Shown: positions 3,334-64,000 of the stretch, piece by piece
How the letters are laid out: the number at the start of each line of letters is the position of its first letter
Position numbering within the stretch: position 1 is the first letter of the stretch
Assembly: GCF_000003815.2 (NCBI RefSeq)
Contig: NC_049989.1
Span: 19,276,123-19,340,122 of the forward strand
DNA from: Branchiostoma floridae
Taxonomy: Eukaryota; Chordata; Leptocardii; Amphioxiformes; Branchiostomatidae
Length of the DNA: 64,000 bases
Direction: 5' to 3'
Notes under the pieces: generated by a model
The model's database searches: none
The model's input: only the letters and a program-made list of their open reading frames with translations
What the model was told of the DNA's origin: nothing
Position numbers and translations under genes: made by a program

Positions 3334-3580
3334 TTCTTTTAGGGACGCATTTCATCCCCCGTAGTCCCTGTGATAACATGACTGTACTGGACGAGTGTTT
3401 TCCATCCGTCATAAGAATACGAATCAAGGGAAAGATACTAGTTGCATGGTTTAGACACGTGATTCCATGTGTGTGTCCTCCCTGACTGTACTGGACGAGT
3501 GTTTCCATCGGTCATAAGAATACGAATCACTTCTTTTAGGGACGCATTTTCATCCCGTAGTCCTTGTGATAACATGTGCA
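3250..3580 (-). repeat. local triplication that breaks ORF1
   Basis: The segment containing CTGTACTGGACGAGTGTTT and CATAAGAATACGAATCA occurs three times (about 3288-3335, 3380-3427 and 3486-3530). The adjoining GATTCCATGTGTGTCCTCCC and TTCTTTTAGGGACGCATTT segments occur twice. The copies differ by small indels (a run of Gs, a missing T, a GT insertion), so the reading frame changes across the block. This explains why ORF1 appears as two overlapping open frames. Confidence 0.8.
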
Positions 3581-4343: not shown

Positions 4344-4380
4344 GGACTGGTGCAGACTTGACGTCGAGGACAGCAGTGTT

Positions 4381-4820
4381 GAATGCTGGAGATGCTAAGT
4401 TTCCTCGCCCTGAGCCGGGAGGTGTCCACGTAGTGACGTCTGGGTGAGGTCTGAGGCTGACCGGTCCCTCAGGTTTCCTAGGATCTAGTACAGGGAGCAA
4501 AAACTTCCGGCAGCATCAACAAAGCCTTCAAAGAGAACAACTAAGACTTCTCATAAAGGTCAAAGACTTTGTGCGTTGTCGTTGATGTACCATGTACTGA
4601 ATACCCACCGGCCCGGGTCCCTATTACAGGACCCGCTGAGTGTGCAGAGTGCCGCCGGTGTGATATGGGGGAGGGGGGCACGTCAAACAGCAAACGCCGG
4701 TCACAGCAGCGCTGAATGCTGGAGATGCTAAGCTCCTTCACCCTGAGCCTGGAGGTGTCCACGTAGTGACGTTGACCAGTCCCAAGGTTTCCTAGGATCT
4801 AGTACAGGGAGCAAAAACTA
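4381..4820 (-). repeat. two tandem 5'-leader units of the CR1-like element
   Basis: Two related units of about 110-130 bp occur at 4381-4510 and 4714-4820. Shared blocks are GAATGCTGGAGATGCTAAG, GGTGTCCACGTAGTGACGT and TAGTACAGGGAGCAAAAACT. The offset is 333 bp at one end and 314 bp at the other, a difference of a short deletion. They lie immediately upstream of ORF1. Tandem 5' promoter monomers are known in some LINEs (mouse L1), and each unit here carries a TGACGT core. Promoter activity is inference. Confidence 0.6.
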
Positions 4821-28952: not shown

Positions 28953-29019
28953 ATGGTGGCAACCGGCGTCCCTTGGCGTGCTTTCTTGCTGCTTGTTCAG
29001 GCGTATTTCACTCAAGCCG
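28953..29019 (+). CDS. polycystin-like gene, signal-peptide exon
   Basis: [19 protein letters not shown] is a leader with a hydrophobic core, ending GCC G|GTAGGA in phase 1. The next recognised exon begins in the same phase. It is 1.7 kb upstream of the trefoil exon, so a small intervening exon cannot be excluded. Confidence 0.65.
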
Positions 29020-32000
29020 GTAGGACGAAATTGACGGAACATTTGAGCTCAAATTACACATATCTAGGGACCATGTCTAATGACAACATCTGCATGTCTT
29101 CTCGTCTAACGTACTTGGTTGTTAGCTGTTGCATGGCACATTTTTGACAAATATATTACAGATGAACCTACCACAACACACAAAATGGAAAGGAGGTTTT
29201 GAAGAAGTGATAAAACAAGTGATAGCAACAAATTCAGCATTGATCTTACATATAGGTAGAGGGATTTCAACTTGATTGTCGGAAATACTGCGTGGCGTTA
29301 AATGGCCGAATGGATAGGCTCTAGGTCACGAGATTGAGTGATAACGAGTTTGATGACTGGCGTTCCTGGCAAGGCTTACGTCACAGTTCCAAACCGGGGC
29401 CCGGCCATGCAGCTTTCGGGGACGAAAAGTCTGCTAATAGTGACCGCGCCAACTATGACGACATATAACTTCCAAGCGACATGTACTAGGACAACCAAAC
29501 TTCTTTAGCAACGGGTTTCCGAAAGGCATATTTTACCAAATTTACCAAATTTGGTTTAAACAATCTAATATATTCGAATGTAACATTTTTTTATTAAAGC
29601 ATGAGCAAATTACACGCACAGTGGTGCCGCACTCAAGCTGAAAGCTTATGTTCACGGCACCACTAACAAAATACACTGAATGAAAAGTAAAACACAAATA
29701 TACGGGAATCGTCATTATAACAGAGGTGAAATAAATGAATAACTAATGCAAACATATATGTAACCAATATTGAACAATACCGCATTTAAACTATAACAAC
29801 AGAAAACAATTATACAAAACGTTTAGATTCCAATAAGTACATCTGGGTCACATACAACACCCCAGAATTATCAGCAGCGGAGAGGAGAGGTGAACCCCTA
29901 ATCAATAACATTATAACATCTGTTTCCGACATGGCATCTATGTTGAGGGTTAAAATATTCAAATTTTTTAGCCTGTCAAATAAAAGTAAACGTTGATTTG
30001 TAAAGTTAGGGCAGTGCAATAGGAAGTGAGAAATGTAACATTTATAAGTAGATGTTCATCATGCTAATGTGATGACGTAATTAGTCAAAATCCAATTAGC
30101 GGATCATATCATGATGAAAAAAGTACCATTAGGTTATTTTCCATAGAATTTGATCACTACCTGGTCTTTTCTTACAAAAAACGTTCATGTTACCGTTTTT
30201 AGTCCGTTTTGATGTAATTCGGTGGTTATATGTTGAAAAAAGACATTTATGGTTGATGATCCAAATGGCTGATCGAAAGCGATAGCTAAAATACACATGA
30301 CATCATTTTATGACGTCATTGTCGTTGCTATTGACAACAAAAGTATTATAAGACTTAGATATTACTACGAAAACCTTATTGTTAACTTTTTGGTATTATC
30401 GGAATTCCATATTTAAACCATTTTAGCCAATAAAATCAACGTAATGACGTCATAATTACGTCTTAATTACGTTTTTAGAATATGAAGGGGTGCCGAATGC
30501 CTACCCCCCCCCCCCCCAAACACACACACACACACACAGTAATGCCCAAACGCCACCGTCCTCTACGATTAAAAGAGGACGGTGGAGTAGACGTATGAGC
30601 TTCACCTGACGACACCGTGCCTATGACACAGTGGATTACAAAACACTGTCGTTATCTAGTTACGGCCTCCACAAGGCTTTGGGACTATATGAACATTTTG
30701 CCTTTTACATTACCCCAGTATTCCGGGAGTGCACGTATGATCCGTCTATACGTAGAGACTGCGGCTGGCCTTACATCACTCCGGCAGAATGCGTGGGCAA
30801 TAACTGCTGTTTTGATGATTCGATTAGAGGCACTAAGTGGTGCTTCTATAAGCTGGTATGTCATCTTCTGAGACCCTCTTAGACTGGTAACATCTATGGT
30901 CGAATTAGCGACCGTTAAAGAGAAATGTATTTCTAAGTTTAGCAACAATCAGACATTTTAGGCAGCATCCTCATTAATTTATGCATTGAATATCTGAAAT
31001 ATTTCAGATCCTGTTCACGTAACTGATCGTATTATCTTGAATATATAGCTATTGTTTTCTCTTCACTATTTTGTGTTCTTCATGATTATTTCAAAAGGGA
31101 AATAAGAATAAATTTTACTAATTTGAGTGATATTATATATATATTTGTATGTCTTCGTCTGTAAAGAAGAAAGGGCTTTAGACTTAGGTTCAGCCTCCAG
31201 TTTAGGTGATTTAGACATGTGTGGTAATAGCGGTTGTTGCATACTAGGCGAATAACCTTGATCATCATTGTAAATAACACACTCACATTCACTCCGTCGA
31301 GTTCATTATCGAAAATGAACGTGAACTAATTATAAGCCTGATTGAAACTAAAACAAAAGAGCGTTTTGGAATAAATGACCACTAATATACGTGTCTCTTT
31401 TCTTTCAGTGCCCCACCCTAACACCCCCTGAAAATGGTGAGGTGTTCGGCTCCAATTTTTACGAAGACCAGGCGACATTTCAGTGCTACATAGGCTACAA
31501 CGTGGCTGGCACTAATCCGATTACCTGTCAGGCTGATGGGACTTGGGATGCAGCTTTTCCAACATGTGAAGGTAAGGCCCCCTTTCCACTAGACGGCGAT
31601 CGCGCTGCGCTCTCACTGCGACCTAAATAGGATATGTGTAACCTTCGCTTTCACACTGGTCACAAAACGTAAAAGTGTGACTGAGAAGACAACAGAACAC
31701 ACAAAGTGTAAAAAGATTAGTTTCTTTTCTATAGAATTCGTTGAGCGATATGTCAAATTTTAGGTCGCAGAGAGAGCGCGGCGAGAGCGCCGTACTAGTG
31801 GAAATGGGGTATATGAAAGCGCCTAACCCAGAACAGAAGCAGAACAAGTTGATATCGGTAAGTATAGAATAAGTCACTACGTATAAACCACAGGAATTAA
31901 GTTCCGCCTTACAGAAAAAAGTACCATTAGGTGTGCGCAACTTGGTGTTTTAGCACTCAGATTTCCCGTTTTGAAGCTTGTTTTTACAATACGTTTGCTT

Positions 32001-35000
32001 AAGCTATAAGAAGTGATATCTAGTATAATATATATGCAAGGGAACTAGTGTTTGCAAGCTTAACAATGGGTATCGTTTGTCTGTAGTTGTACAGTGCCCC
32101 ACCCTGACAGCCCCTACAAACGGTGGCGTGACCGGTCAAGACAGCTATACTGACATTGCAATCTTCACCTGCAACTCTGGATACAACCTGGTTGGCAGTT
32201 TTACCGCTAGATGCCAGGCGGATGGGAACTGGGATCAAGTATTCCCAACATGTGCAGGTGAATATGGCTATGATAGAACCAAAAAAAAAAGATTGCAGAA
32301 GCATTTCAAGATCTATTACTATCGAATAATTCACAACATAAAAATTGAAGGGATAAAATTACAATCTACTTTGCTGTGGTATAACAAACAGCGATAGATC
32401 CGTCCAGCTTTAGAATATGGTGTCGTATGGAATCCATTTCCATAAAGCTTTAGGCAGTGACACGGACAATGGAAATTCAAAAATGTTTTAAGTTGATAAT
32501 TTACAATATGACCGTTTGTCTGTAGGTGTTCCGTGCGACCCGCTGACATCCCCTACAAACGGTTGGGTGAGCGAAACCAACAGCAACAATTACCCGAACG
32601 TGGCTACCTATTATTGTAACACAGGCTACAATGTGGCTGGCACCAATCCAATTAACTGTCAGACGGATGGGACTTGGGATGCAGCTTTCCCGACGTGTGC
32701 AGGTAAAAAATTCTGCGTATTTAACACATTAGTTTCACCCTCATCATCTCGTTTTTTTTTAGGCAAATTAAGCCCAAATTAAACAGACATTTCGAGTCTC
32801 CGCCAGTAGTTCCATTTCCTTCATTGTTTTTGATCCGATTTTTCCATCCCCCAAGAATGTACTTCTCAAGGTATCCCTGGGTACGTCTAAAGAGAGCTAA
32901 AAGTGCCTATATAGGGACACAAACTGTCAGAAGTAATTTGAAATTAGAGACTATCAAAGAAGTCTCAACGCATAAACATTAGTAAAATAATGATACAGTA
33001 GAGATTAAGCAGAAATTGATAATGTTAGAATTGCACAGCTTGTTGCGTTTTTGTGCATTTCGTGTTTGAAGCTTTACTTCAACTATCATTTGCTCCAACC
33101 AGCGATACCGACAAGACTTACTGCATGAACATAAAGGGGGTGGGAGTGATACTACACACCTGTTTTTCTCTGGCGTTTGACTTATATGTAGTTTTGAAAC
33201 GAACTAGTGTTTGTAAGTTTAACAATGGGTAACGTTTGTCTGTAGCTGTACAGTGCCCCGCCCTGACAGCCCCTACAAACGGTGCCGTGTCCGGTACAAA
33301 CGACTACAATGTCATTGCAATCTTCACGTGCGACCCTGGCTACAACCTGGTCGGCAATTCGGCCGTTAGATGCCTGGAGACCGGGAATTGGGATGCAGCA
33401 TTCCCAACGTGTTCAGGTAAAAATAAAGTACAAAATAGGGAAAGACGAAAATCTAATATCAAACTTCGTTCTTTTTCCAGGGAAAAGCATTCATCTATCT
33501 TTTGATACATTTCAGTTTTGTACTGAGAGGATAGATTAATGACAATGGTGACTTGAAGCATCGAGCAGAATTTGAAGTCATCACAATGTGAAATAGATTT
33601 GCTCATTTCTAAGAGGGTTTGCATGGGGTGTCCCGATAACGATTTATGCTGAATTCAGAAGAACCCCCTACGTATTACGCTAAATCAAGGAAGGCAATTA
33701 CGCTAAATTTGGTCGCCTCGCTACGATTTATGTAGATAAGATGGTTTTTCCCTTCGAGTTACGGGAAATAAAAATAGGCTGCCTACTCCTTACGGAAAAG
33801 AGCATGCGGACCCTCTTCGAAAGCAGTATCTTACCAAATTGTGCGCGCCCAGTATAAAAATTCCAGGATAATATTGGTGCAGTCCCATGAGATACTCTTC
33901 ACGTTGCTGAACATGTTCGATGACGAATATCTAGTTTATTTTTAGCTTAATTCAAACATCTTTATTTAGCTGGACTGTGTCCCACTCTACCAAACCCTAC
34001 AAACGGTGCCGTGAGCGGTTCCAACTCCCTCGGAGACGTGGCCACCTTCACGTGCAACACAGGATACAACCTAGTCGGCGGTTCTACACGGACATGTCAG
34101 ACGGACCTGACTTGGAGTGGAAGCTCACCAACATGTACAGGTGAGACAGGGTGGGAAGAAATAGTCAGGCTGAATATTGATAGATTTTGTGTGTGTATCT
34201 GTCTCTATCTCTTCGTGTGGATCTGTCTCTATCTGGTATCTCTGCCTTAATCTCTCTCTCTCTCTATCTCTCTCTCTCATGTGGTCTAACCTTATATGCC
34301 TATGCTGGTCAGCTGAAGGCAGTCTCATACTTGTTTTAGATATGACGGCAGAGTTTTACAAGTTGCAATCCATTCCGCCATACAGCTGTACAGTGTCCCG
34401 TACTGTCGGCCCCAGCAAACGGCGGCGTGAGCGGCGGGAACTCCTACGGAAACGTGGCCACCTTCACGTGTGACTCAGGGTACAGCCTGTCTGGCTCAGC
34501 GACACGTACCTGTCAGGCGGACACCACTTGGAGTACAGCCTCACCAACATGTGAAGGTAAAATTAAAGCGACTAAAAGTAACAGTAATGGAACAGTTATT
34601 TGTAAGGAACATTGCTTGTTGTCAAGTAGACGTTGATCGACATTCTTGGAAATACACATTTCTGGAGTCTTTGTTACATTTACTTTCATGAAAGACATAG
34701 ATGTCATTTTCTATAAATTTTGATTGTTCAAAGCTTTACGGTAAAGGGTTAAAGAGCCTAAATATATATATCTAGAGCACCATGTTATCATAGTTTTTAT
34801 ATCATATATTTAAATAAAGGATTTATTCATTTTGACAGCGTTTCACTTACTTCATTGTGCACAACTTAAAGAATGCTTTTTGGTGCAGATTATTCGAACA
34901 TTTTTTAATCTGATTGATTACCGGTATCTAGTTAGTAACAAACTCTAAACTTCTGAATTTAGCTGGACTGTGTCCCACTCTACCAAACCCTACAAACGGT

Positions 35001-38000
35001 GTCGTGAGCGGTACCAACTCCCTCGGAGACGTGGCCACCTTCACGTGTAACTCAGGATACAACCTAGTCGGCGGTTCTACACGGACATGTCAGACGGACC
35101 TGACTTGGAGTGGAAGCTCACCAACATGTAATGGTGAGACAAGGAGAGAAGCTATATATTTAAAGATTGATAGGTTTTTTGTGTGTGTCTGTCTCTATCA
35201 CTTTGTATGGATCTGTCTCTATCTGGTATTCCGCCATACAGCTGTACAATGTCCTGCACTGACGGCCCCAACAAACGGCGGCGTGAGCGGCGGGAACTCC
35301 TACGGAGACGTGGCCACCTTCACGTGTGACTCAGGTTACAGCTTGTCTGGCTCAGCGACACTTACCTGTCAGGCGGACACTACTTGGAGCGCAGCTTCTC
35401 CAACATGTGCAGGTAAAACGGAATATACTAAACGTTACAGAAATGTGGTATTTATTCGTACGCATATTTGCATGTTGTCAAGTGGGCGTTAATCGACATT
35501 CTTAGAAATACCCATTTGTGGAGTCTTTGCAACAGTCACTTTCATCATGTAAAGATATAGAGGTCATTTTCTATAAACTTTGATGGTTAAAAACTTAAAG
35601 GTAAAGGCTCAAAAAGCCAAGGAATGACTTTTATTCCATTTAAATCAGGGTTTTGGTCATTTCTCTCACTTCATTGTTCGCACCCACTTGAACAATACTT
35701 TGTACCGATTTGGTGCAGTCGTTTTAAAAATTTGCCTAACTTTCCTGAATGTGTTTGATTAACAGTATCTAGTTTAAGTAGCAAATTCTAAACATCTATA
35801 TTTAGCTGGACTGTGTCCCGTTCTGACACCCCCTACAAACGGTGCCGTGAGCGGTTCCAACTCCCTCGGAGACGTGGCCACCTTCACGTGTAACTCAGGA
35901 TACAACCTAGTCGGCGGTTCTACACGGACATGTCAGACGGACCTGACTTGGAGTGGAAGCTCACCAACATGTACAGGTGAGACAGGGTGGGAAGAAAAGG
36001 TCAGGCTTAAGATTTATTTTGATTAGAAAATCAGTAATATCTTGTGAGGCAGATGAACATAAAACACGGTTGCACAATAAGTCTTCTTTCTGTCTCTACT
36101 ATTCTCTTTTTCTTTCTGTGATCGATGTGGATTGAAGCATTCTCTTACTTGTTTTAGCTGTGACGACAAATTATCACTAGTTGCACTCCATTCCGCCATA
36201 CAGCTGTACAGTGTCCTGCACTCACCGCCCCAACAAACGGCGGCGTGAGCGGCGGGAACTCCTACGGAAGCATGGCCACCTTCACGTGTGACGCTGGTTA
36301 CAGCCTGTCTGGCTCAGCGACACTTACCTGTCAGGCGGACACCACTTGGAGCGCAGCTTCTCCAACATGTACAAGTAAATAGATTTAATCCCAGAAAAGA
36401 TAACACAACCATCATCAATATTATTTTTTTTGGTGTGTTTAGAACTTGATTTAGTTGTTTAGCTGTTGTCAACCCAGGAGGAAAGGACAACTGACCTGTG
36501 GCCAATATTGTTCCGATTTGACGCCACAGGTCTATTTAAACTTTCTTTTTTGATTTACTGGCTAAATTATCTTTTGTGGCAGCTGCTGAATGAAAAACAA
36601 TACTACGTAGTATTGCCTTTATGTAATTATTTGTGATTTCCAAATTTTACTTGTGTTTACAGTTGGACAGTGCCCCGCTGCAACAGCCCCTACAAACGGT
36701 GCCGTGACTGGATCCAACTCTTTCGGCGACACCATCACCTTCACGTGTGATCCAGGATACAACATGGCGGGCCCGTCTACACTTACCTGCCAGTCGAACC
36801 TGGCTTGGGATGGAAGCCCACCAACGTGCTCAGGTGATATTTGATTATTATTATAACATGTAAGTTATAATTGTTTTTTTTCATAAATAAGGTATTTTTT
36901 ACACACCCAGAAGCATACAAATGAGGAGGATTACACCTTATGGGTTACTAATGTACCCAATACTATTAACCATGTGCCATTTTAGATATTTCAGTAGACA
37001 TTGATAAATTATTTTTCATATAAGATACAGTGAAATACAATACGGGCATAGATTACGAACGTTCATATTAAAAATTGCAGGTTTAAGAACGCGGTGTTTT
37101 TTTGTATGTTCAGCCAAAATTAGTATTTTTGCTTTCTATCAAACGGTATTACATCCAAGTGACCTAATATTTAGTGCGCACACAGTTTCAATATGTGTAC
37201 ACTTTTCCGAAGATTCCGAAAGCTGTGAGTTGGTCTTATCTAAGCTACCAAAATGACTTTTTAAAGCCCAAATAATTAAATCATGGCAGTTGCTAATAGC
37301 AAATGAATGACAAGTGTGCTCCCCAGTAATATCTCTTATTAATATTTATTACTTATACAGCTGCAGTAATATTTATTTTTCCCTATTCCTAACATTTTGA
37401 AAACTACACCTGTATACAGCTGGACAGTGTCCCGCTCCAACACCCCCTACAAACGGTGGTGTGACCGGAACCTACTCTCTTGGGGACACGGTCACATTCA
37501 CGTGTAACACAGGATACAACATGGCGGGCTCTTCTACACTTACCTGTCAGACCGACCTGACTTGGGGAGGAAGCCCTCCAACCTGCACAGGTAACTTCCG
37601 TTTGGTTACCATATTATCTTCCTCATCTCATCTGTCCCTTCGTTTAACTACTTGACCGTTGGACACCACAGATCTGGCAAAAAATTTTCTCTTTCCTGTA
37701 GTTCCCAATGCTTCCATTTTCCCCGTTGTCTATCCCTTTTACGCCCTCTCTACACGGTTCCTTGCATGATACGATATTGTCTAGTCCCGAATAACTGTGG
37801 CACGTAAGATGCATGCACTCTCATTGCACTTGCGTCAAATTGCGTCTCTGCGGGGTCGAAAGATACTGAAGGAATTTCAGTGATAAAGAACGAATTTTCT
37901 TACTTTTTGTGTATTTTGTCGTCTTCTAAGTCATTCTTTTACGTATTACGCAATATCTAAATTATAGAAATACGGAGAAAATAACAAAACAGTGACGCAG

Positions 38001-49366: not shown

Positions 49367-49402
<36 letters not shown>

Positions 49403-52390: not shown

Positions 52391-52446
<56 letters not shown>

Positions 52447-55400: not shown

Positions 55401-58400
55401 TATAAATTTACTCTTTCCAGACACAGATCCGCCATCTGATTTCAAAGTTCAAAAGGTTTCCTCCACTTGGATTTATGTGAAATGGACGCCACCTGTCGCA
55501 GCCGTTGTCTCCTATCAACTTGAAGTGATAGAAGATGTAAGCCAGGACGAGATGCAATTCACGTGAGTAAACAGCCCCACGTGAATAAAAAAAACGTGCG
55601 TGAAGGTTTTTTTTTCTATTTGCTTTGGGACAAACGAGGACAATGTGGCACTGCACTCAAGTTTTGTAACTTATATTAACAGTGTCACATACAGTCTTTT
55701 ACCTCCCCGACCGAAGTCTGGTACCCATTTTTTACACCTGGGTGAAGTGAGGAAGGCCGTGTAAAGTGCATTTTCCAAGAGCAAAACGTTGGGGGCACGG
55801 TGGGGATCGAACTCTAGACCTATAGATTCCGAGCCGAACGCTCTACCAGTTACGCCACGCCCGACGCCACGTTAAGGTGGAGGTTGCGTGTTTGAGTAGA
55901 CCCACACCTCGAGCACGTTAGCCAGGGGGCCATACTTGTAGGGGTAGGAATCCTTGCCGCTATGAGCGGTTCAAAACCTACAGTCGTATTATATCGTACG
56001 TATTGAAGCAATTATTGTACTGAGGTCATCCAAGTTAGTACCAAATGTCAGCCGCTCAAGACCTTTGCGATTTAACCCCGCACATTTGAAATTTCAGCCC
56101 CTGGAACCCAGAGGCAGAGAGAAAGAGAGAGAGAATCTGTTAATTCTTAACATAAGTTCTAACGTCAAGGTACGCCGAATAGCAATTACTCTGGCAACTT
56201 GATATGATTTGAAAATGGTCAAAATCATATCCAGTTGCTTGAGTAAGCGCTATTTGGCGTATATTATCACCTGGGTATCTAACCTTTATTGACGTGTAGC
56301 GTCAAGGGTTGTAGGTTTTGCATTTTAGCAGCCTCAGGAATTAATGGACATCATTTTATAACACTGCAGTGTACCCCCTACTCTAACTGCCTTCAACATA
56401 ACGGCGCTCAAACCGACCACTAAGTACATCATCCGGATTGCAGCCGTCAGTGTGTACGGAAGTAGTGACACCGTTGAGATCCATGGTAGCACAGGTAGAT
56501 ATTTCAACTTAATGTATTAGTTATCTACACATCACATAAACCATCATGTTCAAAGAGGGCACATTCTCTCAACCTGAGTTGGCAATTACCGTGTAAAGAA
56601 CAGTTATTACAAGAAAGAAAACGTTTGATAATACATTGAAAATCAAAGTAATCGAAAGACAGGCTTTAGCTTTTACATTGACTTGTTGTGAAGTCCCATG
56701 GCGCTTAGTCTTGTCCTGTGATTCCTGTGATTTCTTTTTTTGCTTATTAAAGGAAGATCAGTCGAAGCATTCCTACAAATAATGTCCACCAATTGTATCT
56801 TTGGGGACAGCCTTCTAATTCTATGCTCGGGCTCCACTGCGTACTATAACCGTCATTCGGCGTACCACACGGGCACGCTTTTGGCAGGAGCTAGTTGTTA
56901 CAGAGCGAAAAGTCACACCTAACCTTTGCACATCCTTCTGCACATTAGGGGTGTCGGAATGCAGGGAACCGTTAATGGAAAAGATAGATTATTAAGTTAA
57001 ATCTAAACATATGTTTCTCAATAGTATCTGCCGTCGTCACTGAATATTCAGTAAGGAAAACCACAACACAAGAGGCTACAACAACAACAACGGACAGATA
57101 TGTCGCCACCACGGATGCGTTCTGGTTTACTCAACTGCATACTATGCGTAAAACAGGTGACATAATTGACTATGTCCACATCCCCTATCAAATGCCAGTA
57201 ACGTGGCCAGTGTGCATCAAATATACATAAGTGTAGATTTTTCTTATAAAATCTCAAAAGTATGAAAGCCTATTTATAGATAGTATCGATAAAACCTGTA
57301 TTTGCCAATACAGTAGAAGCCAGTTGATTGCACAACGGATAACTGCACGCTTCTGTTAATTGCACGGAATTCCCAAATCCCAAACCGGTGCGGTCCAGCT
57401 GGATAACCGCGCATCATTACACAATCCGGATAAATGCACGAAATACATTGGTAAATGGGGTGTGCAATTAAACAGCTTCTACTGTACCATGTACTCTATT
57501 AGCATCTTAATTAAGGTCACATGAAGAGGCATTTTTGCACAGAGATAGTCATCTGTCATATGATACTCGAGTGTGAGTTTGCAAACTTGCTGAACGCGTG
57601 TGTGTTTTCTTTACAGGCTCTACACCAGACATAAAACAGTTAGGTTAGAGGAGTTAGAATCAACAACGATGTCTTCTACAACAGGTAGGAGTATAATCAG
57701 CAACATATGTCATCAAAGTAATTTCTTCTGGATTTTTTTTCCACAAAAATAAAAATAATTATATTTCCGCTATTCTGTGTTGTCCTTTTACCTCTCCTAC
57801 TCACTTTCAGTTACCACATTTGATTTTGTTAACTTTATTTGTTTACAAAATTGGATTTTGTTCCATACAATTCATTTAATGTAATTGCATTGTGAGGTGA
57901 CTTCAAGACCCTGTTAGTTTCAAACCTTTGATATTGAAAGTCAATGATACAGCGAGTATTCAATTATCATGCAATTACAACTAGGGAATGGTGAATTGTG
58001 AACACATGACCGTAACGTTTTAGTCTGACATTACTATCATGAATACACATCTTGTCTTTTTGCAGAATTCCAGCTACAAAAACATGCATTGACCACACCT
58101 GTGACGACACCACGACGTACGTTGAAAATAGCACTGTTTGATGTTTTAAGTAACATGTTAGAAATACTCAAAGAAAGATCTAAATGTTTCTTATATATTT
58201 CCAGTTGGTGTGTTATGCAAAATGTAGTTTATGAATTCATATTTAATTCAATATTCATAATGCGATAAGTTTTTGCTAAAAAGGGTACTTCATGCTCCCT
58301 ATTGATTCTTTGCGATTTTAGCCAGCGGCCGAGAGTACCGCACTTCTGAAACTACTCCAAGTCTTCTCCAAACGGTAAAACATTTTCTTTACAAATAATT

Positions 58401-61400
58401 TGCTCTTGTAGACTCTGCATTTTTTACTCTAATGATTTTTCATTGTATGAATCTAGCATGTACTTCATACAAAACACTGTTAACATGACTTTTATGTGCT
58501 TTTATGTACTATCTGCCCTTTAAAGATGCAACGTATGAAATATCGAGTGGGCCAGCTGTTGAAAGAAGGCACGTCATCGGACGAGGTTTTAACCACCTTG
58601 GAAAATGTCCACAAATTGTTCCTGGACGACTCATTTCTACACCTGACAAACATTTCGTCGGAGTTTCCACTTGAAGTGGTAAGCCATGATTGAATTACCT
58701 TCGCCATGTTTTAGTAGCGTCTACAGGTGCTCATGTATGTATATGTGATCTTTTGTGTGTACATATGTTTGGGGATGAACAGGATATCTCTAGTTTGCCT
58801 GGATTGCTTGTGTTGATAATAGGTATGTGTATATGTCTTGAAGAGAACTCAAAATGATCAGATTTTTGGCTCCCTAATGGCTAATCATGGTACTGCAGAT
58901 GAACTGCCGGTTTTGGTACCGTGTCTGGACATGCCATTGTTTTGATTTCTGAGTGCGGATAGCTCTTGGGCAGAGAGTACTTGGTGTAGGTTTTGGCCCC
59001 CCTAGCAGGTTTTCTGGCTCGGTTTAAAATTTCATTATTTTCTTGATTTAAATATCTATGGTAAGATAATGTGTATATTGTGATCACAATGCTCATATTT
59101 TACATATTTTTGTAACAGGAAGCAGCTGTGGAGCTGTTTAGCATGTCTTCTGAACTCATCAGAGCATCACAAGGTGCAAGAATACCAACGATGGAGAGAT
59201 TAAATGAAGGTAAAAAGGCCTAAGAGTAGTTGGAGAGATTCTTCATAGACTGCGATAAATGCAGTATGAATATGTTCGTCCTTGAATTGAGTATATTATC
59301 AAATAAACTCTGATATTTGCGTTTGGCTGTTTTGCTTTTGATCGTCTGGTTATGGCATTTTTACACTGCATGGTTTGTTATTTTTTCAATTTACTGTATG
59401 ATACTGCTATGCTTTTTGTGTGTCTATTTTTCCACAAACATTCGTCATGGTAGTGTAACTTTTATAATTGCATTAACCATGATAATGTTCTTGATATCTT
59501 TAGTCGTAGCACAAACAGTTTCACGTCTGTTCCAAATACTGCCGGTTGGAGATCTGCCCGAACTGGACACCTCTGTGGGTCTTTTTAAAATCGACGACAT
59601 CGATGTCAATTCAGCAGACGTTTCACCTAAACAGCAGCTTAAGACCTTAAAAGATCAGCAATTGGAATTTAATCTACAGGTTGGTTTAACCTCATGTTAC
59701 TTTCGCCACTCATGCAGTGAAGTATTTATAAGCTATATTAGGAAATAATTCGATTATCTTTTAGTGATTTTTTTTATTGTAAACACTATGTTAAAAAACA
59801 ACTACGGTTTTCTTTATAAACATATATGTTAATAGATGGGAATTTCAAACAAGTACATGATTCATTATTACATTCGCATTATTGCAGCAACGTATAGCTG
59901 GCTTGTCTTTGACGAACGCAATTGACAGCGCAGCAGACGCTTTACTGGCCATTCTGCCAGATTCTGAGGACTACCATGCTGTATTTAAAGGAGACCGTGT
60001 CACCGTAGAAGTTGTGAGGTCCACTAATAGTAACAATGTGATATCTCGTGGAAGCCTGGTCAATGTGTCATCTTCTTTCGCAAGCTGTTCGCCTAATGGC
60101 AGTATAGATGCAACGGTTTGTGATTCACTTGTAGATTTTTTTTAAGTTGATGATGTTTATTTGTATTTTCTGCACGTTGTTTTGTTTGTCATTGAAATTT
60201 AAAAAACACTATCTACATATAACCATATCGAAACAATGAATAGTGTCAAGAATAAAACTACATGTATAAATTGCTAACACGTACCAATTCAACATCAAAT
60301 ATTTCAACAAATGTTTTTTTCCTAAATGATATAAATAGCACAAACAGTTGGTGTTTATTATGCAAAATTGGCAACGTTGCTCGTAGTAATTATGTATGTG
60401 CGTTTAAGAAAGTGTATGGACTAGTGAATATGTTATCTCGTGCCAAGCATCAGTATTTTTTCTTAGATCGGAGTACTACATCTTGTCATTTTCTATTATA
60501 GATGGTAGTAATGGACAGAAATCTGTTTTCTTGGAACGGATCAACCTTTGGCCAGAATATCACCACACCCATCATTTCGTTTTCGTTGGGATCTCAAGAC
60601 TTGGACAACTGCTCTATGCAGATGGATCTCTCGATCCCTATAGCATTTGGCTTTACAGATGAACCCAGACGTCAGCGCAGAGCCCTGGATGGAAGTGGAT
60701 TCGGTGGGACGCAGCTCCAAGATAGTGGTACTAATGTCGGACGGAGAAATAACATGACAATGGCATACCACGCATACGACGTACCGGCTGCAACGACTGT
60801 GGTTGTGATGCATCTGTCGTGGTGGGATCACGCTGCCACCTTCAGGATCTTCTTCCGTCACGATGCGCTGCCAACAGAGGAGATGTATGACGACATGGAG
60901 ACGGTGATGGAGGAGGATGTTGTTCTGGCATGGCATCGGGAAACGGGCAGCTCACGGACCTGGGTTCCTAATATCGGGCGACGCCGAGGAAAGCTGTACG
61001 TTGGGATCCAGACAACAGGTATCTGACGAAAGTCAATCTTTATGGCAAATGATGAATGATATCCAAACAAAAAATGATAACATAAAGCATGAATGTCTCT
61101 ATGTTTGGTCAGTCAATTCAACATAGTGTTGTTACTATATCTAAACAACCTTGTTTTTCTTAACTTTATTTGATTGTTTTAATTTGTAATGTTGATAGAC
61201 GACTCCAGGAAGAATAGAGTTATGATAATAATTGTAACTCTAATTGGAGATCAAAATAACCAACCAAACAAACAGACAATCATTTCGCTGTTTTCATCAA
61301 TATAAATTCATCAGAGAAATGCACTGCTCTGATAAATGACTTTGCACTGACGAAGGTAGCAGACAGGGTGTCTGTGGAGAAGTAAAATAAATCTGTGTAT

Positions 61401-64000
61401 GTAAGAAAACTTCATTAGGTTGGTAGAAAATAGGATATTGGAGACCTTCTTCACGACCAGTTGGCTTAACCTGCCTACGCTGTAGTCTTGTTAGAAGCTC
61501 TAGAAAAATGTCTCGCTGGCATCGAAACGTGAGCAGGTAAAAACAACCGGTTGCGAAGAAGTCTTCTGTAATATGCTATGTTGAATGCAATACTGATGTT
61601 TCTACAGCTGTATCGTGATTTTCATATGATTGAGTTCTGATTTTAATTTGCGCAGCTGCAGTAACCATTGCAATTCTTCACCAGTTGCTTATACATTAGA
61701 TTCAAACAAATAGCCAGAGGTAAATTTTGCCTCAATTGAAGGTATGGAATCTGAGGAATGTGTTCAATATGTTACTCTTCTGAAAACATTTTCTTTTATT
61801 TTTGAAACCTGCATCATTTAGGATCTAATATTCTTCAGCACACTGCGCCTTCCGCTGGTGAATATAAACTGCGGGCATCAACTGTGAACTGTATGAGCTG
61901 GGAGGATTCGCCAGAGAAGTGGGAAAAAGACTGTGGGGTGAGCAAACTTGATCCAGATATAACAAAATAGCGACATGTTTATTGCAAATAGTTTTCCCAA
62001 AAAAGATTGCAAGTAATTCTAGATACGGAAAACGACAAACAATAATTGAAATTACATAACACTAGCCTTTTCCCATTCTTCCCCATTCTTTTTCTAATTT
62101 CATGTTTTCTGAAATTAGATGTCTAATACCTAAAACATGTCACTTTGTGTATCACTTTAAGTGTCAATATCATTTTACGTAAGTTGACCTAACAACAAAT
62201 TTGTTTCTCTCCAGGTTATATTGGATCTATCCACAAGTGCCATGAAGTGTAATTGTAGCTTTCCAAGGCCGAAAGCTGTGATCGGTGGCAGCGTACATTT
62301 TCCTCCAAACTCTATTGATTTCGACAAGATCTTTGGAAATCCCGAAAGCCTAACTGAAAATGACAAGGTGTTTTACGTGGTTATCGGCGAGTGGGTCATC
62401 TACCTCCTGTTGATAATCTTCCTAAATGTGGACTTTCAGCGTCTTCGGGTGAGTAGCTCGTTTTTTTTCCTACTATGATTATATTTTTAATTTCATAGAC
62501 AAAGACACTAATGCGCAGGCACAATCATAAATAATTATGCTAGTGAAACAAAATCAATACCAAAAAGCATGTATAAACGAAACAAGAAACTAAAACATGA
62601 CAATTCATACAGTTGAAGCAATTCATAGAGCCGTTGCCCTACTTAATAATAGTAATAAGCACATATTCATCAGTGCAATAATTTTCATACTAAGTTTAAT
62701 ATTTTTTTATGGAAAAATAGCTATAGCCAATGTTGTTACAATTAATTAGATAATACACAACAACATGATCATAAGCAGTCATAGGTATCAACCACGATGC
62801 AATACAAAACAATATTTTTCGCAATGTGCAATATCTACCATTATCGGTAGCTATTGTTATTCAAAACAAGATGTTAAGTAAAAGTAAATATCAAGAAGGT
62901 AGACGGCAAAAGCTTTTAAACGATCAAGTAAATGGTAACCTCTGCTTTTTATCTGAACATAAATATTTAGAACGAAAGAAACAATGTTATAATAAATAAA
63001 ATGTAGAGTGGGTAGCTTATTTTTCATTAAACACTATCACGGTCACAATATTTTATAATATGTTTCTTTGTCCGTCCAGATTATTTATCTTTTTACCTTT
63101 CTTCACCAGGAGAAGATGCGAAATGAATCTCCCAAGAAGAAGATCCAATTGGAACAACTGTCCGTCCTACCACCAGACAGGATGCCAGCCTCGTATCTAT
63201 ACCACATCACCATCAACACCGGCTCTATGTTCGCTGCTGGTACCTCGGCACGGATTGGCTTCCAACTGTTCGGTTCAAAATTGAAGACTGCGGTCAAGAT
63301 GTTGAATCCTGGTGGAGAAGTAAGGCTGGCCCACCATTTTTTCAGGACTACATGTATTAATATAGGATACACATGTACTATGCCAGGGAATGTCACAGAA
63401 GCCAAGGCTTGATAGAGTTGAGATTAAAGCGTGATCTCAGGCTTTTCAAGGCTTCGTGTCGATTGGGTGAGTTGTTATTTCGGGAGATAGAAACAAAGAG
63501 AGTGCTCCTAAGCTAAAACGTTTTGCATTTCATTGTTCCAGTCATTGCTCCGTGGTGGCTCCTATGACTTCATTATGCCAGTAAAACAGCCGCTCGGGCA
63601 TTTGGAACTTCTGCATATCTGGCACGACAACACCGGTGGGGGTGACGCCGCGTCGTGGTTCTTGAGAGAAGTTATTATAAAAGATATGCAAACGGACAGA
63701 ACGTAAGATGCAAAACAATCATTATGTCAGTTTATAGATTCGTAATATAGATTCGTTGTATCTATAGCAGATCATTGTATCTATGCCTTTTAGTATGTGG
63801 CTGTGTCTATGCCTTTTTGCTCCTTCTAAACTTTACAACGGTAGATTTGAAAAATAAATGATGTAATCCTTTAACTTTACTCTTGTAGATCCCAGTTCGT
63901 GTGTTATGATTGGTTGTCTGATGTGAGAGGTGACTGCCAAGTTCAAAAGGCTCTACACGCGGCAACTCGAGAACAGATGCAATCTTTCAATACTCTGTTT
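28953..64000 (+). CDS. polycystin-1-family receptor with trefoil/26 CCP/10 EGF/4 FN3 ectodomain (3' partial)
   Basis: Fifty-eight exons joined in phase give 3,085 codons up to the right edge with no stop. Order: signal peptide (1-22), trefoil (23-68), CCP1-26 (69-1550), EGF1-10 (1551-1960), FN3 1-4 (1961-2325), Thr-rich linker (2326-2419), GAIN-like region (about 2420-2830), GPS (2831-2875), TM1 (about 2898-2920), PLAT (about 2952 onward). GPS, TM1 then PLAT is specific to PKD1, PKD1L1-3 and PKDREJ, 11-TM proteins of cilia, taste cells or sperm that pair with TRPP channels. I see no PKD repeats, C-type lectin or REJ module. CCP exons are nearly all 171 bp and EGF exons all 123 bp, both phase 1-1, so domains can be added or skipped without frameshift. 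A 100-N gap lies between EGF4 and EGF5. Role: probable cell-surface sensor or adhesion receptor (inference). Confidence 0.88.
29590..30060 (-). mobile_element. non-LTR retrotransposon 3' end in intron 1
   Basis: The minus-strand frame about 30050-29810 reads [20 protein letters not shown] and goes on to [14 protein letters not shown], the H-x-L/F-x-H-C-P-x-(F/Y)-x-x-x-R pattern found at the C-terminus of many LINE ORF2 proteins. Sequence down to about 29590 is its 3' UTR and tail. It is 5' truncated. Confidence 0.55.
30719..30855 (+). CDS. P-type trefoil domain exon
   Basis: It encodes [28 protein letters not shown], then GTKWCFYKL. The R-x-DCG-x-P-x-IT..C...CCFD...WCF pattern is the trefoil signature, and all six cysteines are present. 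Acceptor TTACCCCAG, donor CTG|GTATGT (phase 0). Trefoil domains occur in mucin-associated secreted peptides and in some extracellular matrix proteins; its position at the N-terminus of a polycystin-like receptor is unusual. Confidence 0.9.
31409..33416 (+). CDS. CCP (sushi) domains 1-4
   Basis: Exons are 31409-31571 (CCP1, phase 0 in, 1 out), 32087-32257, 32526-32702 and 33246-33416 (all phase 1-1). Each encodes four cysteines in CCP order: C-P at the start, F-x-C near residue 30, C-Q-x-D/T-G-x-W and P-T-C at the end. CCP1 lacks the usual two residues before its first Cys because it joins the trefoil exon directly. CCP3 is two residues longer, with an NSNNYP insert. CCP modules are about 55-60 residue beta-folds used for protein or ligand binding, best known from complement regulators. 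Confidence 0.9.
31578..31809 (-). mobile_element. MITE, family copy 3, at the CCP1 splice donor
   Basis: It has inverted ends CCCCCTTTCCACTAG and CTAGTGGAAATGGGG, with CGCTCTCACTGCGACCTAAAT and TTTTAGGTCGCAGAGAGAGC inside. It is the same family as 23115-23345 and 24206-24430. It begins directly after the six bases GTAAGG of the CCP1 donor. Confidence 0.8.
33970..36374 (+). CDS. CCP domains 5-10, three recent tandem pairs
   Basis: Exons are 33970-34140, 34386-34556, 34963-35133, 35242-35412, 35806-35976 and 36204-36374, all 171 bp. Odd members (5, 7, 9) share [11 protein letters not shown] or [11 protein letters not shown], then [11 protein letters not shown] and TWSGSSPTC; even members (6, 8, 10) share [15 protein letters not shown] and [15 protein letters not shown]. 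The paired introns also match (for example CATTCCGCCATACAG before 6, 8 and 10), so two-module units of 0.8-1.0 kb were duplicated. Confidence 0.92.
36663..39602 (+). CDS. CCP domains 11-15
   Basis: Exons are 36663-36833, 37420-37590, 38109-38279, 38739-38909 and 39432-39602, all 171 bp and phase 1-1. CCP11, 12 and 14 form a subgroup ([11 protein letters not shown] or [17 protein letters not shown]). CCP13 belongs with CCP6/8/10. CCP15 has CSAQ in place of the usual C-P at its first Cys but keeps all four cysteines and the Trp. Confidence 0.92.
39784..40188. mobile_element. hAT-type MITE with 8-bp target duplication
   Basis: Element 39792-40180 (389 bp) has inverted ends TAGTGGTGCGTACCTAAA and TTTAGGTACGCACCACTA. 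It is flanked by exact CCGGAAAA copies at 39784-39791 and 40181-40188. The 8-bp duplication and TAGTGG-type ends fit hAT transposons. Inner repeats of AAGTCCGGAC add further palindromes. It has no transposase and lies in the intron between CCP15 and CCP16. Confidence 0.85.
40407..41125 (+). CDS. CCP domains 16-18
   Basis: Exons are 40407-40577, 40666-40836 and 40955-41125, all 171 bp, with unusually short introns (88 and 118 bp). They start the second CCP subfamily, marked by [17 protein letters not shown] and SLTCQAD. From CCP17 many modules end in phase 1 on C (ACA C|GT) and not G, another mark of common descent. Confidence 0.92.
41247..42025. repeat. 9-bp minisatellite, about 780 bp
   Basis: Long runs of three 9-mers follow one another: AAATATGAT (from 41255), AAATATTAT (from about 41395) and AAATATTAC (from about 41580), then mixed units back to AAATATTAT and AAATATCAT. 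Because 9 is a multiple of 3, several frames stay open on both strands (YDK/YYK/INM on plus, IFI on minus). These are not genes. Confidence 0.93.
42452..43822 (+). CDS. CCP domains 19-21
   Basis: Exons are 42452-42622, 43111-43281 and 43649-43822. The last is 174 bp, one residue longer. All four cysteines and the Trp are kept. Acceptors are TTGAATAG, CCCCATCAG and TTATTAG; the first is weak, but phase and domain are exact. Confidence 0.9.
44399..46947 (+). CDS. CCP domains 22-26
   Basis: Exons are 44399-44569, 44754-44924, 45646-45816, 46154-46324 and 46777-46947, all 171 bp. Modules 23-25 are close relatives (GxMTGxNFYQD, CQADRTW). CCP26 starts WCPMLPTP and ends in phase 1 on G, matching the G of the EGF that follows. 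Confidence 0.92.
47343..48797 (+). CDS. calcium-binding EGF domains 1-4
   Basis: Exons are 47343-47465, 47962-48084, 48168-48290 and 48675-48797, each exactly 123 bp and phase 1-1. Each begins (D/E)-(I/V/T)-(D/N)-E-C and carries NGGC, C-x-N-x-x-x-x-F-x-C-x-C and G-Y-x-L-N. The first is the calcium-binding motif and the second fits the Asp/Asn hydroxylation consensus. All six cysteines are present. Tandem Ca-EGF modules form rigid calcium-stabilised rods. Confidence 0.93.
48400..48600 (-). repeat. SINE-like dispersed sequence in intron
   Basis: The reverse strand holds GCCTGGGAAACCCCGG..GGGGTAAGG, GGCTGTACCCGTCTTTTGTA and AGGGACGTAAATGGGGTCC. The GGGACGTAAA..GGTCC segment is of the type seen in short dispersed retroposons. 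It is GC-rich against its surroundings. No target duplication was found. Confidence 0.4.
48936..49035. other. assembly gap (100 N)
   Basis: A run of exactly 100 Ns, the conventional length for a gap of unknown size, lies in the intron between EGF4 and EGF5. Confidence 0.99.
49173..50421 (+). CDS. calcium-binding EGF domains 5-7
   Basis: Exons are 49173-49295, 49812-49934 and 50299-50421, each 123 bp, phase 1-1. EGF5 has NLIPSF in place of the usual N-(T/S)-(I/M)-G-S-F. EGF7 has NSGC in place of NGGC and ends in phase 1 on A (GAC A|GTAGGG); calcium ligands are kept. Confidence 0.93.
49371..49545. repeat. (CT)n-rich tract
   Basis: A polypyrimidine CTCTCTCT microsatellite with interruptions lies downstream of EGF5. 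The open frame across it ([10 protein letters not shown]) is an artefact. Confidence 0.85.
50911..52303 (+). CDS. calcium-binding EGF domains 8-10
   Basis: Exons are 50911-51033, 51444-51566 and 52181-52303, each 123 bp, phase 1-1. All have D-(I/V)-(D/N)-E-C, six cysteines and the hydroxylation consensus. EGF10 closes the array and joins FN3-1 in phase 1. Confidence 0.93.
52378..52460. repeat. (GT)n microsatellite
   Basis: An almost pure GTGTGTGT run with a few interruptions lies just after EGF10. Confidence 0.9.
52813..53873 (+). CDS. fibronectin type III domain 1 (two exons)
   Basis: Exons are 52813-52932 and 53718-53873. The first encodes strands A-C ([28 protein letters not shown]), the second strands C'-G ([14 protein letters not shown]..). 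Phase 1-1 throughout; 92 residues. The Trp of strand B and the YxxxV/L of strand F fit FN3. Confidence 0.82.
54383..54655 (+). CDS. fibronectin type III domain 2
   Basis: A single 273-bp exon. [26 protein letters not shown] and [15 protein letters not shown] are standard FN3 strands. The acceptor is CACCCGAAG, with a pyrimidine-rich tract before it. Confidence 0.88.
54967..55245 (+). CDS. fibronectin type III domain 3
   Basis: A single 279-bp exon. [29 protein letters not shown] and [15 protein letters not shown] identify it. An RKRRS stretch (55092-55106) sits in the C-E loop and matches the furin consensus. Confidence 0.88.
55421..56494 (+). CDS. fibronectin type III domain 4 (two exons)
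   Basis: Exons are 55421-55562 and 56370-56494, joined in phase 2 (AC|T). [23 protein letters not shown] is followed by [18 protein letters not shown]. The intron carries a tRNA-derived SINE and a dispersed repeat. Confidence 0.88.
55698..55870 (-). mobile_element. tRNA-derived SINE
   Basis: The reverse strand starts GCGTGGCGTAACTGGTAGAG (A box) and has GAGTTCGATCCCCAC (B box) 30 nt on, a tRNA-like promoter. The body continues AAAACGTTT-like, CACTTTACACGGCCTTCC, ATGGGTACCAGACTTCGG and GGGGAGGTAAAAGAC. Acceptor-stem pairing is lost, so it is a SINE head and not a tRNA gene. Confidence 0.72.
55910..56120. repeat. dispersed repeat, shared with 16190-16435
   Basis: GCGGTTCAAAACCTACAGTC, GCAATTATTGTACTGAG, CTTTGCGATTTAACCCCGC and AATTTCAGCCCCTGG parallel the copy in the CAP gene intron. 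Confidence 0.6.
57025..58374 (+). CDS. Thr-rich linker exons
   Basis: Four small exons: 57025-57156, 57640-57684, 58066-58116 and 58322-58374. The phases run 1-1, 1-1, 1-1 and 1-0. They encode [32 protein letters not shown] and TSETTPS-type sequence, probably O-glycosylated, connecting FN3-4 to the GAIN region. The second exon has competing splice sites (see finding). Individual exons here rest on phase and composition only. Confidence 0.6.
57309..57486. mobile_element. pogo/Tc1-like MITE, 178 bp
   Basis: Inverted ends TACAGTAGAAGC..GTTGATTGCAC and GTGCAATTAAAC.GCTTCTACTGTA, with a TA at each border and GGATAACTGCACG/GGATAACCGCGCA inside. CAGTAGAA-type ends with a TA target are typical of pogo-like elements; the family is inference. 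Confidence 0.75.
58526..61018 (+). CDS. GAIN-like juxtamembrane region
   Basis: Exons are 58526-58678, 59119-59209, 59504-59679, 59888-60115 and 60502-61018, all in phase. The first part is helical ([46 protein letters not shown]), like GAIN subdomain A. The last exon is beta-rich ([62 protein letters not shown]) and resembles the pre-GPS part of polycystin-1-like proteins. A RRQRR stretch (60667-60681) fits a furin site. Several N-x-S/T sites are present. Confidence 0.72.
58870..59015 (-). repeat. dispersed repeat copy in intron
   Basis: The inverse of 19100-19260: GACATGCCATTGTTTTGATT, GGATAGCTCTTGGG and GGTTTTGGCCCCCCTAGCAGG parallel the family in 13200-13300. It lies between the two first GAIN-region exons. 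Confidence 0.5.
61330..61570. repeat. repeat with GACGAAGG...CGAAACGT motif in intron
   Basis: CACTGACGAAGGTAGCAGAC and CATCGAAACGTGAGCAGG are the halves of a retroposon tail motif, also seen at 18955-18995, here separated by about 170 bp. It lies between the GAIN exon and the GPS exon. Confidence 0.4.
61822..62448 (+). CDS. GPS motif and first transmembrane helix
   Basis: Exons are 61822-61937 and 62215-62448. [19 protein letters not shown].. then KCNCSF; the C..W......W and C-x-C pattern is kept. The H-L/T-S/T cleavage triplet expected just after C-x-C is absent (SFPRP instead). The polycystin-conserved F-P-P-N-S-I-D-F-x-K-I-F follows, then TM1 ([21 protein letters not shown], given in parts: about residues 2898-2920). 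Confidence 0.85.
63110..64000 (+). CDS. PLAT domain, runs off the window
   Basis: Exons are 63110-63319, 63542-63702 and 63889-64000 (cut by the edge). After a basic stretch (NESPKKKIQ), [19 protein letters not shown] starts the PLAT fold, then [39 protein letters not shown] and [14 protein letters not shown]. The order GPS-TM-PLAT is that of polycystin-1 proteins, where PLAT binds lipids and regulates trafficking. The last residues in view ([12 protein letters not shown]) are the expected linker toward TM2. Confidence 0.9.

What the first reader, a model, noticed from the sequence alone, without database searches (positions are those of the whole stretch)
28953..64000. Polycystin-1-family receptor with a trefoil, 26-CCP, 10-EGF, 4-FN3 ectodomain
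Fifty-eight exons join without a phase break from a signal peptide to GPS-TM-PLAT. That C-terminal order is diagnostic for polycystin-1 proteins. The vertebrate members carry LRR/PKD/REJ/C-type lectin modules; a trefoil plus a large complement-type CCP array and a Ca-EGF rod is a different recognition head on the same transducer. It may be a lineage-specific surveillance or adhesion receptor. The total of 9,255 nt being divisible by 3 is an internal check on the model.
Basis: partly seen in the sequence, partly recalled or inferred. Interest (0 to 1): 0.88.

Follow-up and report, generated by a model that had tools for sequence, protein, structure and literature searches.

The report
Lancelet polycystin-1 with complement-type head
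This stretch holds most of a large gene for a cell-surface receptor-channel of the polycystin-1 kind whose outer part is built from complement-type repeats, one of a group of similar genes in the same genome.

Summary
The gene runs about 6 kb beyond the window (to L009:6008) and ends in a stop codon: 68 exons, 3,950 aa, no internal stop. Pfam finds one trefoil, 26 Sushi, 10 EGF_CA, 4 fn3, PLAT, polycystin domain and PKD_channel. Two genes are very unlikely: a paralogue on contig C19 carries CCP-EGF-FN3-PLAT-channel exons in the same order (omega 0.32), and another repeats the signal-peptide and trefoil start. Seventeen loci share the core at 50% identity or more; 13 have CCP hits upstream, 3 a trefoil hit. 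One sister locus shows pentraxin, F5/8C, laminin-G and C-lectin modules instead. Polycystin-1 family membership is firm; function (recognition gating a calcium channel) is inferred. No transcript was available.

The parts
28953..29019 (+). exon 1: start codon and signal peptide
   Evidence: hydrophobic leader, phase-1 donor; the C11:16.8 Mb paralogue has a like exon (MMTRSVRWRAFLLLLLAKIAQCK) about 0.86 kb before its trefoil
30719..30855 (+). exon 2: trefoil (P-type) domain
   Evidence: Pfam Trefoil 1.5e-10; the next best match in the genome lies just upstream of a paralogue's CCP hits
31409..46947 (+). 26 CCP/Sushi exons, one domain each, phase 1-1 (the first starts in phase 0)
   Evidence: Pfam Sushi, 17 + 9 stretches; exon list in full report
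33954..36379 (+). tandem duplications of a two-CCP unit within the array
   Evidence: 84-94% DNA identity over pairs that reach into the introns
47343..52303 (+). 10 EGF_CA exons, 123 nt each, phase 1-1
   Evidence: Pfam EGF_CA, 10 stretches
52813..56494 (+). 4 fibronectin type III domains in 6 exons
   Evidence: Pfam fn3, 4 stretches
57025..58374 (+). Ser/Thr-rich linker, 4 exons (57640-57684 optional)
   Evidence: open frame; 3 of 4 recovered in the paralogue
58526..61018 (+). GAIN-position region, 5 exons
   Evidence: position; 5 exons conserved in the paralogue, the last one in 8 loci aligned; no Pfam match, no meaningful PDB match
61822..62448 (+). degenerate GPS-like stretch (C-W-W-C-C-C order, no HL[S/T]) and TM1
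   Evidence: TM1 by hydropathy
63110..64000 (+). PLAT domain and what follows: exons 63110-63319, 63542-63702, 63889-64067 (the last runs past the window)
   Evidence: Pfam PLAT 2.9e-16; human polycystin-1 6a70_B 2.2e-29

Best explanation
One gene encoding an 11-transmembrane polycystin-1-family receptor-channel subunit. Its outer part of about 2,880 residues is a long rod (trefoil, 26 CCP, 10 calcium-EGF, 4 FN3, Ser/Thr linker). Shown by sequence: the gene structure, the domains, the same order in paralogues, dN/dS below 1 in every module compared, no GPS cleavage motif, and arginine where the PKD2-type filter has an acidic residue. Inferred: the rod binds a ligand on another surface through the trefoil/CCP tip; binding or pull passes through the uncleaved GAIN-position region to the membrane part; with PKD2-type partners, which supply the cation filter, it gates calcium entry; PLAT and the tail place and couple it inside the cell. 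Expansion of the family and a different head in a sister branch suggest that members differ in what they recognise.
For: Domains. Frame of 3,950 aa. PLAT-TM part matches human polycystin-1 at 2.2e-29; channel part matches PKD2L1 at 2.4e-39 and PKD1L3 at 2.0e-11. Paralogue at C19:11.77 Mb with the same exon order. Omega 0.32 over 2,560 codons, 0.17 to 0.52 by module (point estimates, no test). Of 17 loci at 50% identity or more in the GAIN-position exon, 16 have FN3-2/3 hits, 16 EGF10/FN3-1 hits, 13 CCP hits upstream, 3 a trefoil hit, and 16 the channel exon within 20 kb. 124 of the 150 scored CCP hits lie upstream of these loci on the same strand. Sister locus with pentraxin/F5-8C/LamG/C-lectin frames. 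LGDF of PKD2L1 aligns with LGRF here. Uncleaved family members are known: PKD1L1 and PKDREJ (PMC9672506, passages).
Against: No transcript or protein evidence. GAIN fold not demonstrated (structure prediction was off). In the two best-studied systems cleavage counts: the polycystin-1 N-terminal fragment made by autoproteolysis activates the mammalian channel (PMC7728438, abstract), and the GPS is needed for LOV-1 function in C. elegans (PMC9829181, abstract and section titles); a member without the motif must work otherwise. No expression site, partner or ligand known. Four of 17 loci gave no CCP hit and 14 of 17 no trefoil hit (capped or thresholded searches). The CCP exons compared have omega 0.24, which does not speak for rapid diversification.
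Confidence: 0.6

Rival explanations
1. Gamete or self/non-self recognition receptor on sperm, like ascidian s-Themis or mammalian PKDREJ: the head meets an egg-coat partner and the channel lets calcium in. (A narrower form of the best explanation.)
For: Chordate precedent: Ciona s-Themis-B/B2 are PKD1-like, 11-TM, with a PKD channel, and control self-sterility; a calcium influx follows self recognition (PMC9265791, passages). No HL[S/T], as in PKDREJ. Multi-gene family with a different head in a sister locus.
Against: No REJ domain found and no hypervariable region shown; no v-Themis-like gene seen in intron 1 (8 open frames, no fibrinogen match); omega 0.24 in the CCP exons compared; expression unknown.
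Confidence: 0.25
2. Ciliary mechanosensory tether: the rod, perhaps a hundred nanometres or more (recalled module sizes), ties the cilium to matrix or a neighbour and pulls the channel.
For: Very long rod with calcium-type EGF units; polycystins act on cilia (PMC7728438, PMC9829181, abstracts).
Against: Does not explain a different head in a sister branch or some 17 close paralogues; no localisation data.
Confidence: 0.25
3. Two genes: a secreted trefoil-CCP-EGF protein followed by an FN3-PLAT-channel protein.
For: Nearly all junctions between extracellular modules are phase 1, which would also fit separate genes; no transcript seen.
Against: The EGF10 to FN3-1 intron is 509 bp by the exon ends, and the longest intron in the model is 1.7 kb. 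EGF, FN3 and GAIN-position matches stand in this order at 16 of 17 loci, and the CCP-to-channel order recurs at C19:11.77 Mb.
Confidence: 0.03
4. Pseudogene or decaying family member.
For: Degenerate GPS-like stretch; large family.
Against: 3,950 codons without a stop and 67 of 67 GT-AG introns; omega below 1 in every module compared.
Confidence: 0.02

Closest known systems
Human polycystin-1 (PKD1) and PKD1L1/L2/L3, PKDREJ
   Same: TM1-PLAT, 11 TM with polycystin domain and PKD channel; no HL[S/T], as in PKD1L1 and PKDREJ (PMC9672506, passages)
   Different: No LRR, WSC, PKD-repeat, REJ or C-type lectin match; trefoil, 26 CCP, 10 EGF and 4 FN3 instead
Sea urchin SpREJ proteins
   Same: Ten-gene PKD1-type family with varied heads; one EGF in SpREJ1 (PMC1934368, passages)
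   Different: SpREJs often carry C-type lectin, PKD repeats, REJ; the words sushi and CCP do not occur in that paper's main text
Ascidian s-Themis-A/B/B2
   Same: Chordate PKD1-like receptors, B and B2 with 11 TM and PKD channel (PMC9265791, passages)
   Different: REJ and hypervariable region there, no REJ match here; no v-Themis-like gene seen in intron 1 here
Coral and sea anemone REJ/PKD1 proteins
   Same: PKD1-type protein with GPS and PLAT in a coral (PMC4890752, passages)
   Different: WSC, PKD repeats and REJ in the coral protein; conserved GPS cleavage site there, none here
Factor H/CR1-type complement regulators (recalled)
   Same: Long CCP array
   Different: Recalled: no PLAT or channel in those; here the array heads a channel protein

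Membership tests
Polycystin-1 family | PLAT domain directly after the first TM | tested here: met
   Pfam PLAT 2.9e-16, TM1 just before it, polycystin-1 6a70_B 2.2e-29
Polycystin-1 family | 11 TM segments, the last six a PKD channel with a polycystin (TOP) domain | tested here: met
   PKD_channel 9.8e-34, Polycystin_dom 7.4e-13. Hydropathy lists 11 stretches; without one in FN3 and one of an overlapping pair, 9 are membrane candidates; two weaker ones read by eye make 11, so the number 11 is partly by eye
Polycystin-1 family | GPS/GAIN domain before TM1 | tested here: inconclusive
   No Pfam GPS at E<=10; profile of 8 GAIN-position exons finds only two unrelated PDB chains at E 1.6; Cys/Trp order at the right place
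Polycystin-1 family | HL[S/T] cleavage tripeptide | tested here: not met
   Absent in 5 of 5 family members read; not required for membership, PKD1L1 and PKDREJ lack it
Polycystin-1 family | REJ domain or PKD repeats | tested here: not met
   No Pfam match at E<=0.001; not defining, human PKD1L3 has no REJ and is counted in (PMC1934368, passages)
Polycystin-1 family | C-terminal coiled coil | not tested
   charged tail of 185 residues; no coiled-coil program run
Polycystin-1 family | assembly with a PKD2-type subunit | not testable with these tools
   needs expression
Adhesion GPCR | seven-TM GPCR domain | tested here: not met
   No 7tm family among Pfam matches at E<=0.001
s-Themis self-sterility receptor | partner gene in first intron, opposite strand | tested here: not met
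   8 open frames in or overlapping intron 1: no match over a curated cut-off, no fibrinogen match; short exons could be missed
s-Themis self-sterility receptor | sperm expression and multiallelic head | not testable with these tools
   no expression or population data

The most novel reading that the evidence does not exclude
A chordate 'exchangeable head' receptor-channel system: one polycystin-1 core (FN3, GAIN position, PLAT, channel) that carries either a trefoil-CCP-EGF rod with a changing number of CCP units or a pentraxin/F5-8C/laminin-G/C-type-lectin head (the latter read at one sister locus only), spread over more than twenty loci and used as germ-line encoded recognition receptors that report contact as calcium entry.
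Probability: 0.3. Interest if true: 0.8.

Novelty: new variant of a known kind. Interest (0 to 1): 0.6.

Why it matters
Polycystin-1 is the main gene of human polycystic kidney disease, and what its huge outer part does is still debated. A genome with some seventeen close copies in which the membrane machinery is kept, the outer modules are of an unusual kind and a sister branch has others makes the question testable: what the membrane part needs from the head, whether cleavage is dispensable, and whether CCP arrays, best known from complement control, can be the sensing end of an ion channel.

Tried and rejected
Two-gene reading: set aside on intron sizes and paralogue order. Glycerotoxin as a relative (from the listing): passages read; EGF, WSC and CCP at its N-terminal end and no known domain at its C-terminal end, so not shown to be a polycystin. 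A lancelet chordin model with a PKD_channel (PMC6071037, passages) was traced by its authors to a gene-prediction error; that warning is why I sought paralogue support. PMC2575513 (amphioxus novel genes): a term search found no CCP, sushi, PKD, polycystin or PLAT in the main text.

Literature: 10 searches (one search was on cleavage, the other nine on this question). In their listings, which show at most 40 papers each, I saw no paper on a CCP-polycystin protein or family. I opened nine papers, none of them in full. The library lacks most subscription journals, so absence is weak. Automatic gene records may already hold this architecture; I could not look.

First exon model (62 exons) lacked one CCP exon, cut one short, and lacked several GAIN-position exons and one PLAT exon; a lower exon penalty added most of these but also doubtful short exons; the final set was curated by hand and checked. 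In one search two donors were off by one base and the frame broke; corrected. Exon 62 was first begun at 66370; 16 other loci match the preceding 27 codons too (15 family loci, one of them from the fourth residue on, and a sister at 38%; two of the family's channel loci gave no match), so it now begins at 66289. Pfam was run on the earlier 3,923-aa version in four pieces, not on the final 3,950 aa.

The CCP search scored 150 of 1,648 candidates, so a zero there is no proof of absence. That EGF matches, not only FN3-1 matches, stand at 16 of 17 loci I read from the table.

Full report
What was checked. The window lies at G000:C11:19276123-19340122 in a genome of 513.4 Mb and 431 contigs. Size and gene content fit a lancelet such as Branchiostoma floridae; that is my inference from recalled figures, no tool named the species. 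I read 28500-64000, built a self-trained splice and codon model, curated it by hand and fetched 50 kb downstream.

Gene model, window coordinates; positions over 64000 are L009 position + 64000. SP 28953-29019. Trefoil 30719-30855. CCP (26): 31409-31571, 32087-32257, 32526-32702, 33246-33416, 33970-34140, 34386-34556, 34963-35133, 35242-35412, 35806-35976, 36204-36374, 36663-36833, 37420-37590, 38109-38279, 38739-38909, 39432-39602, 40407-40577, 40666-40836, 40955-41125, 42452-42622, 43111-43281, 43649-43822, 44399-44569, 44754-44924, 45646-45816, 46154-46324, 46777-46947. EGF (10): 47343-47465, 47962-48084, 48168-48290, 48675-48797, 49173-49295, 49812-49934, 50299-50421, 50911-51033, 51444-51566, 52181-52303. 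FN3 (4): 52813-52932 with 53718-53873; 54383-54655; 54967-55245; 55421-55562 with 56370-56494. Linker: 57025-57156, 57640-57684 (optional), 58066-58116, 58322-58374. GAIN position: 58526-58678, 59119-59209, 59504-59679, 59888-60115, 60502-61018. GPS-like and TM1: 61822-61937, 62215-62448. PLAT: 63110-63319, 63542-63702, 63889-64067. Rest: 64332-64483, 64707-64824, 65220-65404, 66289-66492, 66717-66891, 67231-67812, 68017-68247, 68627-68711, 69041-69279, 69449-70008. In all 68 exons, 11,853 nt, 3,950 aa and a stop, 67 of 67 introns GT-AG. Because 64000 cuts an exon, divisibility of that number by three proves nothing; the stop-ended frame does the work.

Not chance. Best exon chain 753 forward, 45 on the reverse complement, 20 and 12 on two shuffles (parameters trained on this gene, so the comparison leans forward). 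Pfam: Trefoil 1.5e-10; Sushi 9.4e-204 and 5.4e-78, 26 stretches; EGF_CA 4.3e-69, 10 stretches, with the EGF-like model FXa_inhibition a little better on ten; fn3 1.9e-41, 4; PLAT 2.9e-16; Polycystin_dom 7.4e-13; PKD_channel 9.8e-34 (on the earlier 3,923-aa version in four pieces). Against sequences of solved structures the PLAT-TM part hits human polycystin-1 (6a70_B, 2.2e-29); the channel part hits PKD2L1 (2.4e-39), polycystin-2 (best 6.8e-37) and PKD1L3 (2.0e-11).

One gene, not two. The longest intron is 1.7 kb, and EGF10 to FN3-1 is 509 bp by the exon ends. A paralogue at C19:11.755-11.815 Mb (L044-L049, minus strand) has 27 CCP hits, then ten EGF, the four FN3, linker, GAIN-position, GPS-like, PLAT and channel exons in the same order, 60 to 100% identical over the matched parts; from EGF1 on they pair one to one, except the optional linker exon (not recovered) and the last exon, which lies outside the fetched stretch. 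So there are at least 27 CCPs there against 26 here. Our CCPs 1-7, 10, 19 and 20 are no hit's best match there, and no trefoil was found in the 6.8 kb before its first CCP hit; this stretch has 846 N. Nei-Gojobori on 2,560 gap-free codons gives dS 0.26, dN 0.082, omega 0.32; by module CCP (9 of the last 11 exons) 0.24, EGF 0.19, FN3 0.41, linker 0.47, GAIN position 0.52, GPS-like 0.47, PLAT 0.30, TM 0.17, channel 0.43 (one gapped exon skipped; point estimates without a test). The second-best trefoil match in the genome, C11:16795179 (63%), lies 1.0 kb beyond the farthest scored CCP hit of the C11:16.73 Mb paralogue, with a signal-peptide exon sharing WRAFLLL with ours about 0.86 kb before it. 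A third trefoil match lies upstream of the C19:14.51 Mb locus; I saw no like signal-peptide exon in the 4.5 kb read there (L057).

A family. The GAIN-position exon finds 28 places, 27 used in the table. Of 17 at 50% identity or more: FN3-2/3 within 15 kb upstream in 16; EGF10/FN3-1 in 16; CCP hits within 75 kb upstream on the same strand in 13; trefoil in 3; channel exon within 20 kb downstream in 16. Fourteen of the 17 are on contig C19, two on C11, one on C204. The one without FN3, EGF or CCP is C19:12573897; the others without CCP hits are C19:13940995, C19:5205595 and C204:337994. Of 10 at 31-36%: FN3 in 9, CCP in 0, trefoil in 0, channel in 9. Of the 150 CCP hits scored (of 1,648 candidates), 124 fall in these upstream stretches and 26 elsewhere. 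A FastTree tree of the main channel exon, 19 loci, groups our gene with C19:11.76 (support 0.89), then C11:16.72 (0.99), then C19:13.03 Mb (0.99).

Another head on the same core. Directly upstream of the FN3 exons of the 33% relative at C3:14.64 Mb, I gave Pfam 10 open frames picked by eye from a 10-kb piece (L058). Nine of 10 had a match at E<=0.01, seven over a curated cut-off: Pentaxin 2.1e-12, F5_F8_type_C 2.3e-13, Laminin_G_3 1.8e-9, Lectin_C 5.9e-7 and 4.3e-7, fn3 6.7e-6 among them. That these exons are spliced into the C3 gene is inferred from order and strand, and I read no other sister locus.

Cleavage. Pfam GPS gives nothing at E<=10. Where polycystin-1 has HL[S/T] the family reads CNCSF-P (ours, C19:11.77), CNCSF-S (C11:16.73, C19:13.02), CNCDV-P (C19:14.51): 5 of 5 read without the motif. 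Three sister loci (C3, C9, C18; 31-33%) read CKCHMT, CKCRVT, CTCDMA; the first comes near the motif. By the review PMC9672506 (passages), PKD1L1 and PKDREJ also lack it and are not cleaved. So this member is probably not cleaved (inferred). Against an easy transfer of the known mechanism: in mammals an N-terminal fragment from autoproteolysis is proposed as the channel's agonist (PMC7728438, abstract and outline), and LOV-1 of C. elegans is processed at a conserved GPS that a section title calls essential for mating behaviour (PMC9829181, abstract and outline). The GAIN fold itself is not shown: a profile of 8 such exons finds only two unrelated PDB chains at E 1.6, and structure prediction was off.

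How it may work. The membrane part is that of a polycystin-1-type subunit. In the alignment with PKD2L1 the filter LGDF meets LGRF, so a cation filter would have to come from PKD2-type partners (inferred). LOV-1 is required for sensing a mating pheromone (abstract). The nearest chordate precedent for recognition is Ciona s-Themis (PMC9265791, passages). I take ligand recognition by the trefoil/CCP tip passed to a calcium channel as most likely, with gamete or self recognition (a narrower form of it) and ciliary tethering as rivals. None of this was tested.

Limits. No transcripts, no second species, no expression, no population data. A 100-N gap sits in the EGF4-EGF5 intron. Ten searches of an open-access library, nine on this question, listed no description of such a family.

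Noticed in passing
window 77-4394, minus strand: Non-LTR retrotransposon-like frames: endonuclease and reverse transcriptase in 77-2419, a GDSL-lipase match below its cut-off in 2416-3351, no match in 3441-4394.
   Followed up: partly
window 41241-42024: Long AT-rich tandem repeat (units like TATAAATAT) in the intron between CCP18 and CCP19.
   Followed up: no
window 48936-49035: Run of 100 N, an assembly gap, in the EGF4-EGF5 intron; the paralogue has no extra EGF exon there.
   Followed up: yes
L009 about 7190-7294: Downstream of the stop a frame ends in NNRRLFQGKLRQKFAARRMKKEREKM, like the end of the gene's own tail: a possible alternative or duplicated last exon.
   Followed up: no
L042 (C19:5.29 Mb): Channel and tail exons 85% and 69% identical to ours; the list shows no earlier channel exon beside them: a partial copy or a gene in pieces.
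   Followed up: partly
C19:9.156-9.20 Mb: CCP and EGF hits and a partial trefoil hit on one strand, no GAIN-position match listed near: maybe a relative of the head without the channel.
   Followed up: no
L058: Sister polycystin-type locus with pentraxin, F5/8C, laminin-G and C-type lectin frames before its FN3 exons.
   Followed up: partly
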